Source: Arthrobacter beigongshangensis (GTDB lineage: Bacteria; Bacillota; Bacilli; Bacillales_A; Planococcaceae). Taken from it: 64,000 nt of DNA. Position numbers and translations under genes: made by a program. Each line of letters starts with the position of its first letter. Positions within the stretch are counted from its first letter, which is position 1. Under the pieces are notes generated by a model. That model did not search any database, was not told the origin of the DNA, and was given only the letters and a program-made list of their open reading frames with translations. The DNA is taken from contig NZ_JADHDX010000003.1 in NCBI RefSeq assembly GCF_016820585.1, forward strand, positions 186,001 through 250,000, in the 5' to 3' direction. Below, one piece after another: positions 27,534 to 33,567 of this stretch.

Positions 27534-27583
27534 GATTATATGAGGGTAATATGTTATCTTATCATCAGTACGTTTTAGAAAAA

Positions 27584-27722
27584 CTCTTCGGGGCAAGGTG
27601 AAATTCCTTACCGGCGGTGATCGAGCGATTGCTCGTTAGTCCGTGACCCGCCCTTCCTATTTGGAAGGCGGTGGAGCTGGTGAAATTCCGGCACCGACAG
27701 TTAAAGTCTGGATGGGAGAAGC
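27584..27722 (+). promoter_or_regulatory. FMN riboswitch (RFN element)
   Basis: All RFN landmarks are present: TCTTCGGGGCAAGGTGAAAT, CCTTACCGGCGGTGAT, the variable GAGCGATTGCTC stem, AGTCCGTGACCCGCC, GGTGGAGCTGGTGAAATTCC, GGCACCGACAGTTAAAGTC and GGATGGGAGAAG closing with TCTTC. It should reduce expression of the downstream rib genes when FMN is high. No U-tract terminator follows. A repeat (27750-27882) and a hairpin covering the ribD ribosome binding site come next. Confidence 0.95.
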
Positions 27723-27749
27723 TGTTTGACTATATGTACTATGCTTATT

Positions 27750-27882
27750 TAACTTGCTTGAGTAGGATTAAATCCTACTCAAGCAAGTTAAAGCCTCCGG
27801 CGGATGTCACAGATTTTGAAAGGAGTTAATCGAGCAAGCTCGATTCAAAATCTGGACGCAATTACGCCGAGGCGCAATTGAT
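27750..27882 (+). repeat. Modular hairpin repeat, copy D
   Basis: The left module is reduced to a perfect 18-bp stem AACTTGCTTGAGTAGGAT / ATCCTACTCAAGCAAGTT. Then come the conserved GCCTCCGGCGGATGTCAC, the stem CAGATTTTGAA/TTCAAAATCTG enclosing ATCGAGC/GCTCGAT, and GACGCAATTACGCCGAGGCG. It sits between the FMN aptamer and ribD. Confidence 0.85.
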
Positions 27883-27887
27883 CTCTG

Positions 27888-27909
27888 CCCTTTCATAACA
27901 GTGAAAGGG
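27888..27909 (+). promoter_or_regulatory. Hairpin masking the ribD ribosome binding site
   Basis: CCCTTTCA (27888-27895) pairs with TGAAAGGG (27902-27909), covering the AAAGGGGG site of the ribD remnant. It could be the riboswitch expression platform working on translation. Confidence 0.5.
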
Positions 27910-27918
27910 GGAATGCTG

Positions 27919-28528
27919 ATGGACCATAGATATTGTATGGGAATTACTCTTGGACTTGCGTACAGTGCAAGAGGACAGAATTCACCGAATCCTTTCGCCA
28001 ATGGAACAGGAATCGGGCTTCTTAAAGTTGCCGAAATGGAAGCTATCACCGGCATTTTACAGGAAGAGGCAGAGCAGATGAATCGAGCATTTTTTCACCT
28101 TATTAATTACTACGGGAAGCCGTATGTCACCTTGAAAGCCGCCGCAACTCTCGACGGTTGTCTTTCAACGCAGACTGGGGACAGCAAATGGATTACTTCG
28201 GATGCAGCAAGAACCGATGTCCATCACCTCCGCCATACCCATGATGCTATTTTGGTCGGCATACAAACCGTACTTCATGATAACCCTTTCCTCACCACCC
28301 GTTTGCCCCATGGTGGAAAGAATCCAATTCGAATTATCTTTAGACAGGCATCCTAGGATGCCAACAACAGCAATATTACGACGAGACGCAATTGATCAGA
28401 GTCGGAAATTAATTAGCCATGGTGCTTCTTTATTCATGGACAATACAAGGAACCGGATGACGAATCACTCCGTTTTTTAGATGTGCCACAAATCGGGGAT
28501 GATATTCGATTGAGTGCCAGGTTCGTGA
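27919..28528 (+). pseudogene. ribD: Decayed ribD (riboflavin deaminase/reductase)
   Basis: Three RibD pieces are in one frame. The N-terminal helix and NSPNPFANG resemble the deaminase start. An in-frame deletion of roughly 100 residues has removed the zinc site (HAE and PCxxxxxxPPC). GILQEEAEQMNRAFF then leads into VTLKAAATLDGCLSTQTGDSKWITSD and ILVGIQTVLHDNPFLTTRLP of the reductase domain. An in-frame TAG follows at 28354-28356, then further stops, and finally LDVPQIGDDIRLSARFVKED, which has the look of the RibD C-terminus, ending at 28528. About 150 reductase residues are also missing. A normal RibD is ~360 aa, so neither activity can survive. Confidence 0.88.
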
Positions 28529-28545
28529 AGGAGGATTGACAGTAA

Positions 28546-29196
28546 TTGTTTACTGGAATTATTGAAGAAATCGGAACAGTTTCAGCGGTAAGGCCAGCGA
28601 CGAATTCATTGCAACTATCGATCCGTTGTAGCAAAGTGCTAAGCGATGTTAAAAAAGGAGATAGTATTGCAGTGAATGGTGTTTGTTTGACGGTCTCACA
28701 CTTCTCAAGCAACCAATTTACAGCGGATGTCATGCCGGAAACAGTTAAGGCGACAACACTCCAAGCATTGCGTGCGGGAAGTCCCGTCAACTTAGAGAGA
28801 GCGATGGCGGCGGATGGTCGCTTCGGTGGTCATCTAGTCAGTGGACATGTTGATGGCACGGGCGAAATTATATCGATTAGACAGAAAGAAAATGCGGTGT
28901 ATGTGGAAATCAACGTGGATGCTAATCTGTTAAAGTATTTTATCCCAAAGGGTTCTGTAACAGTGGATGGCACTTCACTGACTGTCTTTGGTGTGACGGA
29001 TAAAGGATTTATCATCTCACTCATCCCAGTCACACAAGATGACTCAATCATAAGCAGGAAAAGGACTGGGGATCGAGTGAACGTTGAATGTGACATGCTC
29101 GCAAAATATATTGAACGGCTAATGACTACAAACAAAGAGAATTCGGCTGGTGGTTTAACTATGGATACACTCATCACCAGTGGTTTCCTCGGTTAA
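28546..29196 (+). CDS. ribE: Riboflavin synthase alpha chain RibE
   Basis: A 216-aa protein with the usual internal duplication. Start TTG 28546 gives [12 protein letters not shown], the invariant family N-terminus, and GGAGG lies 11 nt upstream. [13 protein letters not shown] and [12 protein letters not shown] belong to the first barrel and the second begins near [19 protein letters not shown]. It dismutates two 6,7-dimethyl-8-ribityllumazines to riboflavin and 5-amino-6-ribitylaminouracil. Appears intact. Confidence 0.93.
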
Positions 29197-29209
29197 GGGA
29201 GGACGACAG

Positions 29210-29848
29210 ATGTATACTACTGTTGAAATAGCAGTCGAGGAACTGAAAAAAGGGAAAGCGATTATCGTCGTTGATGACGAGGACCGAGAAAATGAAGGGG
29301 ACTTTGTTGCACTCGGGGAATTTGCTACACCTGAAATGATTAACTTTATGGCAACGGAGGGTCGTGGACTAATCTGCGTGCCAATAGATGAGGAGAAATC
29401 ACGGCAGCTCGAACTTGGGCTCATGACAGAAAATAATAGTGATGTGCACGGAACTGCATTTACCATCAGCATTGATCATTCGGAAAGTCACACCGGAATC
29501 TCCGCGTTTGAACGTTCAGAGACCGTATTGAAAATGCTTGGGAGTGATGCAGGATCAACCGATTTTAGAAGACCGGGACATATTTTTCCGTTGATTGCAA
29601 AAGAGGGCGGAGTCCTGAAACGGGCCGGCCATACGGAGGCTGCTGTTGACTTAGCTAGGCTGGCTGGAGCAGAACCAGTCGGTGTTATTTGTGAAATTAT
29701 GAATGTCGATGGAACGATGGCAAGTGGGCCGCAGCTGAAAGAGATTGCGGAACGATTGAATCTTGTTATTTTGACGATCCAGGAACTGATTACCTATTGC
29801 GAAGAAAATGAAAAACGTATCAAGCATATCGCTGATATTGAATTTTAA
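29210..29848 (+). CDS. ribB: 3,4-dihydroxy-2-butanone-4-phosphate synthase RibB, stand-alone
   Basis: A 212-aa enzyme making the four-carbon precursor from ribulose 5-phosphate. Motifs are [12 protein letters not shown] (about 21-32, acidic metal loop), [23 protein letters not shown] (landmark HTGISA), and [17 protein letters not shown] and [14 protein letters not shown]. In B. subtilis and most relatives this domain is fused to GTP cyclohydrolase II (RibBA, ~400 aa). Here the frame stops after [20 protein letters not shown] and ribH starts 9 bp later, so the RibA half is absent. AAGGGAGGA precedes ATG 29210. Confidence 0.92.
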
Positions 29849-29857
29849 GGGGGATTT

Positions 29858-30325
29858 ATGATGAGAACAATTTACGAAGGACATTTAGTTGGAACAGGAT
29901 TGAAAATTGGAATCGTTGTTGCGAGATTTAATGAATTTATTACTGGAAAATTATTAGATGGCGCGGAAGATGCATTGCGTCGTCATGGTGTTGCTGAAAG
30001 TGATACGGCAGTTGCGTGGGTGCCGGGTGCTTATGAAATTCCTCTTGTGGCTAAGAAAATGGCGGCTTCGGGGAAATATGATGCTGTCATTACGCTTGGT
30101 ACAGTAATTCGTGGCGCAACACCACATTTCGATTTTGTGTGTAATGAAGTGGCAAAAGGTGTGGCCGCCATCAATATGCAAGAAGGCGTTCCGGTTATCT
30201 TCGGTGTCTTAACGACAGATACAATCGAGCAGGCAATTGAACGCGCAGGGACGAAAGCCGGTAATAAAGGCTGGGATGCAGGGGCGTCTGCTATTGAAAT
30301 GGCGAATTTATTGAAACAAATATAA
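29858..30325 (+). CDS. ribH: 6,7-dimethyl-8-ribityllumazine synthase RibH
   Basis: A 155-aa subunit of the lumazine synthase capsid. [47 protein letters not shown] and [14 protein letters not shown] are canonical; the catalytic His is in ATPHFD. Tandem ATGs at 29858 and 29861 follow AAGGGGG. It condenses the RibB product with 5-amino-6-ribitylaminouracil and ends the operon. Confidence 0.95.
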
Positions 30326-30372: not shown

Positions 30373-30563
30373 GATCTTATGTTCTTTCCAGAAATCAGAA
30401 GCTGGTGAGAGTGAACTTTATGTGGAATAAATGTGAACGATACGTGTCTGAAAATATTTTTTTCGCTATGTCGATGTGATTACAGCCTTTGAATTGTCGC
30501 AAAAACGAATGAAAATCGTTATGATAAAGATAGAAGTTATTGTAAAAGAAGGAGCGATTTAAG

Positions 30564-30896
30564 ATGACTGCTTTTCCAGAAAAGACATGCTCAATTGAAA
30601 AACTAGTTACAATCCCAGAGGATGTTCAAAAAGTATTGAATGGTCAAAAGACGGCTACGCGCCGCAATGGTGTGTACGCTTATCCGGGAGAGATTATGGT
30701 ACTGGATGGTCAAGAGTTTAAGGTGGATGCACTTTATTCACAAACACTTGGTGAAATGACGGACGAACACGCAAAGCAAGAGGGCTATACGAACATGGAG
30801 GAGTACAAACAAGCGATTTTGTCTATGCATGCAAAAATGCCATGGATTCCGACGATGAGCGTGTGGGTCCATGAATTTAGCCCGATAGCGAAGTAA
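30564..30896 (+). CDS. ASCH-domain protein
   Basis: A 110-aa protein. KVLNGQKTATRRNGVYAYPGEIMVLDGQEFKVDAL is the beta-barrel core (landmarks TATRRNG and YPGE, about 25-42) of ASCH/PUA-like domains, which are proposed RNA- or nucleoside-binding modules. The C-terminal PWIPTMSVWVHEF strand is also typical. AGGAGCGA precedes the ATG. The next gene starts 8 bp later. Precise role unknown. Confidence 0.75.
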   Translation: MTAFPEKTCSIEKLVTIPEDVQKVLNGQKTATRRNGVYAYPGEIMVLDGQEFKVDALYSQTLGEMTDEHAKQEGYTNMEEYKQAILSMHAKMPWIPTMSVWVHEFSPIAK

Positions 30897-30903
30897 TCGT
30901 GAG

Positions 30904-31347
30904 ATGAAATCGGAAATCTACGGAATAATTGTTTTTCTCCATGTGCTGAGTGCAGTTCTGTCCATTGGTCCGTTAACAATTTTGATGCCGGTTATCAAGC
31001 GTCTACATGGTGTTGAAGCTGGCATAGAACAAGCATACTTATCCGTAATTAAGGTTGTCATTCGAATCGTTATGCACGCAGGGCATGTCCTTGTAGTTAG
31101 TGGTGTCTTGCTACTGATTTTTGGACCTTATCCATGGACTACATCATGGGTGATTCTAACGCTTGCTGTTTTACTTGTATCAGGTGTTTTCTTATCAAAA
31201 GGCTTTACAATTGTGTTGCGCCGGTTTCATAAGCCTGATGCCGATAAAACCGATATTCTTAAAAGGTTGATGACCACGTCATGGGTTTATCTTGGGCTAA
31301 TGCTCCTCATGCTTTGGCTGATGGTACAAAAGCCGATGATTTGGTGA
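30904..31347 (+). CDS. DUF2269-family membrane protein
   Basis: A 147-aa protein with four membrane helices at about 5-25, 50-75, 80-102 and 124-142. IIVFLHVLSAVLSIGP near the start, with an embedded His, and MHAGHVLVVSGVLLL are typical of the DUF2269 (predicted integral membrane) family; histidines inside helices may bind heme or metal. Co-directional with the ASCH gene. Function unknown. Confidence 0.72.
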   Translation: MKSEIYGIIVFLHVLSAVLSIGPLTILMPVIKRLHGVEAGIEQAYLSVIKVVIRIVMHAGHVLVVSGVLLLIFGPYPWTTSWVILTLAVLLVSGVFLSKGFTIVLRRFHKPDADKTDILKRLMTTSWVYLGLMLLMLWLMVQKPMIW

Positions 31348-31371
31348 ATAAATATTTGTGATACATAGAAA

Positions 31372-31405
31372 GAGATGTGCGCCTTTGCAGGTGCATATCT
31401 TTTTT
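31372..31405 (+). terminator. Terminator after the DUF2269 gene
   Basis: AGATGTGC and GCATATCT pair (one mismatch region) followed by TTTTTT. Confidence 0.6.
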
Positions 31406-31465
31406 ATATTCTTTATCGATTCCTTTTATGGTGTTGTTCGTCTAGATAGGAAAGGGGGTGGGACA

Positions 31466-31978
31466 GTGGAGCAAAGTGAGGAGTCAATTTACCTTGAACA
31501 TAGTGATCGCATTTATCGATATATTTTTTTACAAGTCCGTCAGAAGGAGTTGGCGGAAGATTTGACGCAGGAGACATTTTATCGGGCATTTAAAAATCTG
31601 CATACCTTTCAGAAGCAAGCAAGTCTATCGACATGGTTACTTAAAATAGCAAAAAATGCAACTTATGATCATTTTAGGCGTAAGAGAATCATTCAGTTTT
31701 TTAGTATGGGGAAAGAGGAAGTCACAGATGCGATTAGTTTTTCTCCAGAGGATGAATACTTGAAAAAGGATAGCACTCAAAGACTTTACAATGCGTTGGC
31801 GAGCCTAAAGAAGGACTATCGTGAAGTACTTCTTTTACGAAAAATTAACGAAAGTTCGATTAAAGAAACGGCATATATATTGGGTTGGACGGAGACCAAA
31901 GTGAAGTCGACAATGGCGCGGGCATTTGCTGCACTGAAAAAAGAAATGCTAGAACGGGAGGGAAGAATCGATGAGTGA
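31466..31978 (+). CDS. ECF-type sigma factor
   Basis: A 170-aa extracytoplasmic-function sigma factor. Region 2 is DRIYRYIFLQVRQKELAEDLTQETFYRAF with the -10 recognition segment STWLLKIAKNATYDHFRRKR (about 12-75). Region 4 is LKKDYREVLLLRKINESSIKETAYILGW with the recognition helix TETKVKSTMARAF (about 115-160). GTG 31466 follows AAAGGGGG; the longer frame from 31358 runs through a terminator and is rejected. It overlaps by 8 bp the membrane protein that follows, the normal position for an anti-sigma factor. Confidence 0.9.
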   Translation: MEQSEESIYLEHSDRIYRYIFLQVRQKELAEDLTQETFYRAFKNLHTFQKQASLSTWLLKIAKNATYDHFRRKRIIQFFSMGKEEVTDAISFSPEDEYLKKDSTQRLYNALASLKKDYREVLLLRKINESSIKETAYILGWTETKVKSTMARAFAALKKEMLEREGRIDE

Positions 31979-32756
31979 TTTCGACGAATATGATGTGGAA
32001 TTTGACAAGTTGAAGGATCTTGAGAGAACCGATATTGCACGGGTGGCTAGTTTTAATAAATTGGAGGATCGTAGCAGGAAGAAGAAATTGCGCATACTCC
32101 CGATGATTGCTTCTAGTGTAGTGGTTTCTGTAGTTGCCTTGTTTTTAGTTTTGACGCTGTTTGAGTATGTACCTAATTTAGGTAGTGGGAAATCCATTAT
32201 TGACGATCAAACCGAACTGGAAATTCCTATTGTTGAAGTAACGGCGAATATGTTCACAGTTGAGTATGGAATCGATAATATGGACCGAGGAAATCATGAT
32301 TATGAAACCACCGGTACTGATAAACGAATTGTAATAGACCTTGGAGTATCAAACTTCAAGCGAGGAGATATCGTCTATTTTAAAATGCCTGTCTATTCGA
32401 ACGAAAATTCTGGATTAAATTTGAAAGAACATCAACTATCACGAATTGTTGGCCTACCTGGGGAGAAAATTGAAATTAAAAAGGGGCAAGTCTTTATTAA
32501 TAATCAGAAACTCGAAGCCTTTTACTCAATTCCAACTGTGAGAGGAATGGCAATGGAAGAGTATTTTGAAAAAGTTAGTTCTCAAAACACCATGATGAAC
32601 GAAGAAGATTTTCAAGAAAATATGGAGTCTATTTTAGTTCCTGAAGGCTCGGTGTTTGTTTTAGGGGATCAATGGTGGAGGAGTGTTGACAGTCGTCATT
32701 TTGGACCAATATCTTTAAGTGACGTCGAGGGAAAAGTGCTAGGATATGATCGTTGA
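31971..32756 (+). CDS. Putative anti-sigma factor with an inactive signal-peptidase I domain
   Basis: A 261-aa protein: ~45-residue charged cytoplasmic N-terminus, one transmembrane helix (about 43-65), then an extracytoplasmic S26 signal-peptidase-like domain. Landmarks are FKRGDIVYFKMP, HQLSRIVGLPGEKIEIKKG and FVLGDQWWRSVDSRHFGPIS, which correspond to SPase boxes C, D and E. In SipS-like enzymes the nucleophile is in an SMxPT motif and the general base is the Lys of KRxxGxPG. Here the aligned positions are VTANMFTV (Ser to Asn) and LSRIVGLPG (Lys to Ser), so it should be proteolytically dead. Overlap with the sigma gene suggests an anti-sigma role with a sensor domain made from a pseudo-enzyme. 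Confidence 0.78.
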   Translation: MSDFDEYDVEFDKLKDLERTDIARVASFNKLEDRSRKKKLRILPMIASSVVVSVVALFLVLTLFEYVPNLGSGKSIIDDQTELEIPIVEVTANMFTVEYGIDNMDRGNHDYETTGTDKRIVIDLGVSNFKRGDIVYFKMPVYSNENSGLNLKEHQLSRIVGLPGEKIEIKKGQVFINNQKLEAFYSIPTVRGMAMEEYFEKVSSQNTMMNEEDFQENMESILVPEGSVFVLGDQWWRSVDSRHFGPISLSDVEGKVLGYDR

Positions 32757-32860
32757 TACTAAGTATGGAGGGGTAGCAGAAGCCGCTATAGCGGCTTCCG
32801 TGAAATCATTCCATTTGCTTTACTAGGCCCATACACATTTTTTATGGAACACGAAATCCA

Positions 32861-33439
32861 CTAAAGCGTTAAACTACGAAATCGCTCCGCAACAAACGCT
32901 AAATCCTCTAAAAATAAAGCCCTCAAATTAGGTCGTCGTCGAACGGCAAGGGGATGATAAGCCACAGCAGTGGGGTAGCCTTGAATGTTATGCCATTGTC
33001 CGCGTAATGATTTCACGTCAGCCTTTGGATTTCGAAAAAAGGATTGGACTGCGACATTGCCTAGACAAAGAATAAGCTCTGGCTTTTTCATTTGTATTTG
33101 TTGCTCTAAATGTTGCATACATATTTGGCGTGTTTGGTCTTTATCATAAGCACGCACAGGTTTTCTTTTTAGGATGAAGGTCACATACATATCTTCCGTT
33201 TTCAATCCAGCTTCATTGACTGTTTGCTGTAAGGTTTGCCGTGTTCCGCAAATAAAAGCATTGCCTTCACGGTCTTCTCGCGCTCCCGGATTATCGAGAA
33301 TAACTAGAATGGGAGCATCTGGATTCCCTTCTCCCCAAACCATACGCGTTCCATGTTTATCAAGCCCGCATTCACAACAGTCTTTTGCGTTATCAGGTAC
33401 TGGTTCTTCTGGCCATATTGTCGGGCAAAAATCAGACAT
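32861..33439 (-). CDS. Uracil-DNA glycosylase superfamily protein (family 4-like)
   Basis: A 192-aa protein with the UDG fold. CCECGLDKHG (about 21-30) gives the first cluster cysteines, VILDNPGAREDREGNAFICG (about 47-66) corresponds to motif 1, and AYHPLAVRRRPNLRALFLEDL (about 160-180) to the HPS motif. Family 4 enzymes hold a 4Fe-4S cluster with four Cys; here the third, normally in a VKCRPP segment, reads ILKRKPV, while the fourth may be QICMQHL. Possibly a divergent or clusterless member. Confidence 0.72.
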   Translation of the reverse strand: MSDFCPTIWPEEPVPDNAKDCCECGLDKHGTRMVWGEGNPDAPILVILDNPGAREDREGNAFICGTRQTLQQTVNEAGLKTEDMYVTFILKRKPVRAYDKDQTRQICMQHLEQQIQMKKPELILCLGNVAVQSFFRNPKADVKSLRGQWHNIQGYPTAVAYHPLAVRRRPNLRALFLEDLAFVAERFRSLTL

Positions 33440-33567
33440 CTATATCAGCTCCTTCCACTATGTTTTATTATCTCCATTTTGGGGAACAATTATGTGTGGT
33501 CTATTTGAATCTATTCAGATAAATGATAAAGTAGGCTTAGTGATGAAAAACGAAGGAGTGAAGGGAA

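What the first reader, a model, noticed from the sequence alone, without database searches (positions are those of the whole stretch)
31466..32756. ECF sigma factor paired with a membrane protein carrying a dead signal peptidase domain
Seen: the ECF gene overlaps by 8 bp a one-helix membrane protein whose outside domain keeps SPase I boxes (KRGDIV, RIVGLPGE, LGDQWWRSVDSRHFG). Both catalytic residues are replaced: Ser by Asn at the SMxPT position and Lys by Ser before RIVGLPG. Established: ECF factors are usually followed by a membrane anti-sigma factor; SPase I cleaves signal peptides with a Ser-Lys dyad. Inference: a pseudo-peptidase is used as the sensing part of an anti-sigma factor, perhaps binding signal peptides or secretion intermediates, so the sigma factor may report on secretion load.
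Basis: partly seen in the sequence, partly recalled or inferred. Interest (0 to 1): 0.78.

Follow-up and report, generated by a model that had tools for sequence, protein, structure and literature searches.

The report
Dead signal-peptidase domain on anti-sigma factors
A soil bacterium (Sporosarcina-like) places a catalytically dead copy of the enzyme that trims exported proteins on the outer end of what is very probably the membrane switch controlling a stress-type sigma factor, and the same dead domain is traded between several such switches and free lipoproteins across Bacilli.

Summary
An ECF sigma gene (31466-31978) overlaps by 8 bp a one-helix membrane protein (31971-32756) whose outer part is an S26 signal-peptidase domain (Pfam 1.9e-25; Foldseek top hit the pseudo-peptidase SipA). 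The Lys position is Ser157 and the Ser position is Asn103. The genome has two separate, intact SPase I genes.

This is a family, not one odd gene. In 116 distinct homologues from Bacilli the Lys is gone in 115, Ser remains in only 23, and none has both. Other residues became nearly invariant (M104, E165, Y185, W235). Half the members sit directly behind an ECF gene and carry a cytoplasmic N-terminus; most others are free lipoproteins. The ECF-linked state changes at least 6 times on the tree.

The N-terminus follows the sigma factor while the outer domain is swapped: closely related ECFs are paired with the same N-terminus but an NTF2-like outer domain. A conserved ECF-type promoter precedes the operon.

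Best reading: a membrane anti-sigma factor with an exchangeable, non-catalytic SPase-fold sensor. Anti-sigma activity, ligand and regulon are untested; 'secretion load' is a guess. Standard models misname these proteins signal peptidase I. New variant of a known kind.

The parts
31368..31405 (+). terminator-like hairpin plus T-run that separates the ECF operon from the upstream genes
   Evidence: the only one found in 30400-33500; shuffles give a mean of 2.2, so not significant by itself; a similar hairpin is visible in orthologues L004 and L005
31417..31444 (+). predicted autoregulatory ECF promoter: CGATTCCTTTT (-35 region, 31417-31427), 11-nt spacer, CGTCTA (-10, 31439-31444)
   Evidence: same motif and the same 22-nt CGA-to-CGTCTA spacing in ECF loci of the same type; the best or equal-best match in each of 7 genomes lies at the ECF operon itself; 0 mismatches in the window
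31466..31978 (+). ECF sigma factor (170 aa, GTG start), regions 2 and 4
31971..32756 (+). putative membrane anti-sigma factor with dead S26 outer domain (261 aa); overlaps the ECF gene by 8 bp
31971..32099 (+). cytoplasmic N-terminus, residues 1-43: putative anti-sigma segment, two predicted helices
   Evidence: H4-15, H21-65; homologous to the N-termini of L191 (z=12) and L192 (z=7.8), which have other outer domains
32100..32165 (+). transmembrane segment, about residues 44-65
   Evidence: 19-residue mean hydropathy 2.68; helix
32190..32753 (+). extracytoplasmic S26-like (pseudo-signal-peptidase) domain, about residues 74-261
32277..32279 (+). Asn103 codon, position of the catalytic Ser (preferred register), in IDNMDRGNHD
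   Evidence: the alternative register puts His109 (32295-32297) there
32439..32441 (+). Ser157 codon, position of the general-base Lys, before RIVGLPGE
   Evidence: K in 1 of 116 family members

Best explanation
The two genes are an autoregulated ECF sigma / membrane anti-sigma pair. The short cytoplasmic N-terminus (about 43 residues, two predicted helices) holds the sigma factor, one helix crosses the membrane, and the outer part is a signal-peptidase-fold domain that has lost peptidase chemistry and serves as an exchangeable sensing module. Binding of something at the outer face (a protein or peptide is most likely, given the ancestry of the fold) would expose the anti-sigma factor to regulated proteolysis or change its conformation and free the sigma factor, which then transcribes its own operon from the CGATTC...CGTCTA promoter. 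Shown computationally: gene order and overlap, topology, fold, loss of the dyad, conservation and purifying selection, promoter conservation, and swapping of the outer domain on a constant sigma/N-terminus pair. Inferred: sigma binding, ligand binding, release mechanism, output.
For: Sigma regions 2 and 4 and an overlapping TM protein. S26 fold: Pfam 1.9e-25, hhalign 99.6% to SPase I, Foldseek E 2.9e-7 to SipA 4n31, then SPase structures. Dyad loss across 116 members, none with both Ser and Lys; the positions equivalent to E. coli Gly272 and Ser278 also drifted (G in 39 and S in 27 of 116), while other residues stayed. Purifying selection: dN/dS about 0.19 in the outer domain. ECF adjacency and N-terminal extension go together (57 of 58 against 6 of 58). 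Domain swap: L189/L191 (ECF 64% identical to P0001) have the same N-terminus (z=12 for L191) and an unrelated, NTF2-like outer domain. Type-C anti-sigma-like proteins exist with and without the S26 module. At least 6 changes of the ECF-linked state on starred branches. Conserved promoter with fixed spacing.
Against: No experiment and no complex model: sigma binding is inferred from neighbourhood and architecture. The N-terminus matches no known anti-sigma Pfam or NCBIfam model. No regulon beyond the operon itself was found. No ligand is indicated. Conserved acidic/His residues (D102, D105, H109, E165, D233) leave room for an unknown activity.
Confidence: 0.72

Rival explanations
1. The specific reading of the first reader: the dead domain binds signal peptides or secretion intermediates in the old substrate cleft, so the sigma factor reports secretion load.
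For: The SPase fold binds signal peptides in active relatives; in SipA the cleft is strongly conserved although the dyad is lost (PMC4049620); the hydrophobic residue at 156 next to the Lys site is kept (I/L/V/M in all 116).
Against: No secretion gene is next to the locus and no secretion regulon was found. The most conserved residues (MDRG, FY, W235) are not SPase hallmarks. A closely related ECF uses an NTF2-like outer domain instead.
Confidence: 0.2
2. The S26 domain is not a receptor but a folded guard: it shields the juxtamembrane region from site-1 cleavage, and the true signal acts on it indirectly (membrane or protease stress).
For: RsiV shows that a juxtamembrane element can protect an anti-sigma factor from signal peptidase (PMC6066255). 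The module can be absent or replaced without loss of the N-terminus.
Against: A mere guard would hardly need family-specific, nearly invariant motifs across 116 proteins, nor be kept as free lipoproteins. RsiV's DUF4179 was not found in P0002.
Confidence: 0.2
3. The membrane protein is not an anti-sigma factor but an output of the sigma factor, a surface protein co-transcribed with its regulator.
For: Only the operon's own promoter matches the motif well; the same domain works without any sigma gene as a lipoprotein.
Against: The N-terminal extension is present almost only next to ECF genes and is kept when the outer domain is replaced. Several unrelated N-termini are each matched to their own ECF type.
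Confidence: 0.12
4. The protein is still a protease with a rebuilt active site.
For: Conserved D102, D105, H109, E165 and D233 near the old site in sequence.
Against: No conserved Lys, Cys or alternative Ser nucleophile (only S241, 77 of 89 filled, which is also conserved in SPases outside the dyad). The Ser site accepts N, A, S, T, G, D, E, V. The Gly next to the Lys is lost in two thirds.
Confidence: 0.05

Closest known systems
SipA of Streptococcus pyogenes (PDB 4n31, 4k8w; PMC4049620)
   Same: S26/SPase I fold, membrane-tethered outer domain, both catalytic residues replaced (there Asp48 and Gly85), no peptidase activity expected; best Foldseek hit of the model
   Different: SipA serves pilus polymerisation next to sortase genes; here no sortase or pilin is adjacent, and the domain is fused to a sigma-linked N-terminus
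RsiV/SigV of Bacillus subtilis (PMC4183432, PMC6066255)
   Same: ECF operon with a one-helix membrane anti-sigma factor whose outer domain is a direct receptor (lysozyme); signal peptidase takes part in its proteolysis
   Different: RsiV is a substrate of signal peptidase; the protein here resembles signal peptidase itself and has no DUF4179
CnrY-type (class II) anti-sigma factors (PMC7406223, PMC4598750)
   Same: very short cytoplasmic part with two helices; ASDI domains average 101 aa, and those under 50 aa were set aside as possible class II
   Different: no sequence similarity was shown; CnrY relies on a separate sensor (CnrX), whereas here the outer domain is in the same chain
Type I signal peptidases SipS/SpsB/LepB (S26A)
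   Same: fold and boxes; TIGR02227 matches above its curated cut-off, so such proteins are named signal peptidase I
   Different: Ser-Lys dyad absent in every member of the family; the genome has two intact SPase I genes besides this one

Membership tests
Type I signal peptidase (S26A) | S26 fold | tested here: met
Type I signal peptidase (S26A) | Lys general base in KRxxGxPG | tested here: not met
   Ser157 in the window; not Lys in 115 of 116 relatives
Type I signal peptidase (S26A) | Ser nucleophile in SMxP | tested here: not met
   Asn103 (or His109 in the other register)
Type I signal peptidase (S26A) | peptidase activity | not testable with these tools
   needs an assay
SipA-like pseudo-SPase of pilus loci | SPase fold with both catalytic residues replaced | tested here: met
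SipA-like pseudo-SPase of pilus loci | neighbouring sortase/pilin genes | tested here: not met
   neighbours, judged by their translated sequences, are riboflavin genes, a small soluble protein, a small membrane protein and a uracil-DNA-glycosylase-like gene
ECF sigma factor | sigma regions 2 and 4 | tested here: met
ECF-linked membrane anti-sigma factor (functional class) | overlapping downstream gene coding a TM protein with cytoplasmic N-terminus | tested here: met
ECF-linked membrane anti-sigma factor (functional class) | autoregulated ECF-type promoter | tested here: met
   conserved sequence and spacing; not shown by transcription
ECF-linked membrane anti-sigma factor (functional class) | binds and inhibits its sigma factor | not testable with these tools
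   only single-chain prediction was available
Class I anti-sigma domain (ASDI) | about 100-aa, four-helix cytoplasmic domain | tested here: not met
   cytoplasmic part is about 43 aa; no Pfam anti-sigma hit up to E=1
Class II anti-sigma (CnrY-like) | two short helices that wrap sigma2 and sigma4 | tested here: inconclusive
   two helices predicted (H4-15, H21-65) with low confidence in residues 1-20; no complex model
RsiV/DUF4179 anti-sigma factors | DUF4179 juxtamembrane domain | tested here: not met
   no hit for P0002 up to E=1

The most novel reading that the evidence does not exclude
The signal-peptidase fold has been domesticated as a general, non-catalytic ligand-binding module on the outer face of the membrane in Bacilli. 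It is traded between free lipoproteins and several unrelated ECF anti-sigma factors, and senses exported peptides or proteins (or a metal at the acidic MDRGNHD loop) at the former active site, so that a dead processing enzyme became a receptor.
Probability: 0.25. Interest if true: 0.8.

Novelty: new variant of a known kind. Interest (0 to 1): 0.6.

Why it matters
Outer sensor domains of anti-sigma factors decide what ECF systems respond to, and few have known ligands. Here a whole family of them, at present named 'signal peptidase I' by standard models, proves to lack the catalytic dyad and to be attached to several different sigma factors. It gives a natural set of swapped sensors on one sigma/anti-sigma core, with a candidate promoter to use as a reporter, so ligand screens are straightforward. 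It also warns that SPase I counts in Bacilli genomes are inflated.

Tried and rejected
Single-sequence scan of genome contigs found nothing; the alignment scan found 80 loci. The order-level genome search returned the same 261 genomes as the family search. hhalign and MAFFT suggested Ser aligned to His109; I prefer Asn103 because short-loop members bridge the gap, but the point stays open since no coordinates could be inspected. Regulon search with the type A motif gave no convincing targets: 2-mismatch hits were not consistently above the reversed-pattern control, and those inspected lie inside or near unrelated genes; the one upstream of a secreted protein (L236) looks like a generic GAAAC...CGTC ECF promoter. 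The type C motif likewise hits only its own operon. Pseudogene decay was rejected: dN/dS about 0.2 and family-wide conserved motifs. Literature searches for S26 domains in anti-sigma factors returned nothing pertinent; most subscription papers are not held, so a prior mention cannot be excluded.

Full report
Observation. The ECF gene (31466-31978) and the membrane gene (31971-32756) overlap by ATGAGTGA. The sigma factor has regions 2 and 4. The second protein has about 43 cytoplasmic residues, a hydrophobic segment at about 44-65 and a Peptidase_S26 domain. AlphaFold2 gives mean pLDDT 83.8, with the outer domain mostly above 90. Foldseek finds the pseudo-peptidase SipA (4n31) first and then true SPases. 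The genome carries exactly three S26 proteins: two SPase I with intact SM and KR motifs and this one.

Dead dyad. Lys to Ser157 is supported by HMMER alignments to PDB chains and by hhalign. For Ser, two registers are possible. MAFFT and hhalign with close relatives put His109 at the site. Members with a shorter loop (L161 DNMDRGNHDFYDELIVVD, L171, L082 DVMQRDGQFPEKVVVD) keep nearly SPase spacing when the residue before the near-invariant Met is taken as the Ser site, which gives Asn103. Either way the window protein has no Ser there. Across 116 distinct family members (score at least 65 bits, duplicates by C-terminus removed) the Lys site is G 46, S 43, A 19, T 4, and one each of I, K, H, V; the one K (L070) has Asp at the Ser site. 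The Ser site is N 38, A 32, S 23, T 12, others 10, gap 1. None has both. The Gly that in SPases lies against the Lys (E. coli Gly272, PMC4049620) is kept in 39, and the Ser278 equivalent in 27. In contrast M104 (115/115), E165 (115/116), Y185 (113/116), D233 (111/111) and W235 (109/111) are nearly fixed. The outer domain evolves with dN/dS about 0.19 against the 73%-identical orthologue. This is a conserved domain that has left peptidase chemistry, not a decaying gene.

Family and architectures. Profile searches separate the family from SPase I. It occurs across Planococcaceae and sporadically in Bacillaceae, Paenibacillus and others. Architectures: (i) ECF plus TM protein with S26; (ii) ECF plus a protein of about 380 aa with an extra domain before S26; (iii) ECF plus a protein of 515-530 aa with extra regions on both sides; (iv) free lipoproteins with lipobox; (v) a few TM-anchored forms without sigma. 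Of 58 ECF-adjacent members 57 have at least 36 residues before the membrane segment, against 6 of 58 others (Fisher p about 1e-24, not corrected for kinship). Inspection makes most of the six explicable: L071 and L160 have shortened ECF frames just upstream, L147 lies at a contig end, and L030 and L176 start too early; L152 remains a real exception. On a tree of 111 domains the ECF label needs 13 changes, at least 6 on well-supported branches, so the module moved repeatedly between anti-sigma-like and lipoprotein contexts (for example L094/L063 lipoproteins beside L054/L062/L021 ECF-linked forms).

Domain swap. The strongest evidence for the roles of the parts comes from close ECF relatives. 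L189 and L191 (ECF 64% identical) and L192 (50%) are followed by an overlapping TM protein whose first 44 residues match the window's (z = 12 for L191, whose protein is 97% identical to that of L189, and 7.8 for L192; a genome search with the L191 protein also returns the window's N-terminus with E = 1.4e-5), but whose outer part is unrelated. The L191 outer domain also circulates as free lipoproteins, and its model is alpha+beta with weak NTF2-like matches (E no better than 1.6e-3). Type C proteins exist with N-terminus plus middle domain but no S26 (L198, L206, L211, L213, L214), with both, and with S26 alone (L045, L049, L053). So the N-terminus follows the sigma factor, and the S26 domain is an add-on that can be gained, lost or replaced.

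Promoter and output. Upstream of the ECF start the type A loci have CGAYTCYTTTT-like and CGTCTA boxes 22 nt apart; in the window they lie at 31417-31444, after a terminator-like hairpin at 31368-31405. In each of seven genomes the best or equal-best match is at this operon, and weaker hits are not consistently above control. Type C has its own motif, again unique to its operon. Autoregulation is well supported by conservation; other targets are unknown.

Interpretation. The pair is best read as an ECF/membrane anti-sigma system with a class II-like short cytoplasmic part (ASDI domains average 101 aa, and those under 50 aa are possible class II; PMC7406223) and a dead SPase-fold sensor. Precedents for the pieces: SipA is a dead SPase with a conserved cleft (PMC4049620), and RsiV is an anti-sigma receptor processed by signal peptidase (PMC6066255). 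I found no report of the combination, but the searchable library lacks most subscription papers. The secretion-load idea is open and rated low. NCBIfam TIGR02227 matches these proteins above its cut-off, and a plasmid-borne lipoprotein member is annotated lepB, so the family is hidden under a wrong name.

Noticed in passing
window 27580-30325: Riboflavin operon with an FMN riboswitch (27580-27727) but a broken ribD remnant (no deaminase part, frame change near 28350) and a ribB-sized gene (29180-29848) without the RibA half; ribE and ribH look intact.
   Followed up: partly
L091 = Planococcus lenghuensis plasmid NZ_CP019641.1, 29013-29579: A plasmid-borne lipoprotein member of the dead S26 family is annotated as lepB, signal peptidase I.
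   Followed up: partly
L191:1991-2710 and L255-L264: A second outer-domain family (NTF2-like by weak fold matches) is likewise shared between anti-sigma-like proteins (L189, L191; L260 looks like another N-terminal type) and free lipoproteins; the window's own genome has members (best at G000:C9:11872-12279).
   Followed up: partly
L070:1384-2067: The single family member that carries Lys at the general-base position has Asp at the Ser position: either a retained or a regained Lys.
   Followed up: no
L067:1498-2958 (minus strand): Two tandem S26-like genes behind an ECF gene, one ECF-linked with His at the Lys position and one further form.
   Followed up: no
L183, L112 and L016: ECF-linked members with long extra C-terminal regions of unknown nature.
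   Followed up: no
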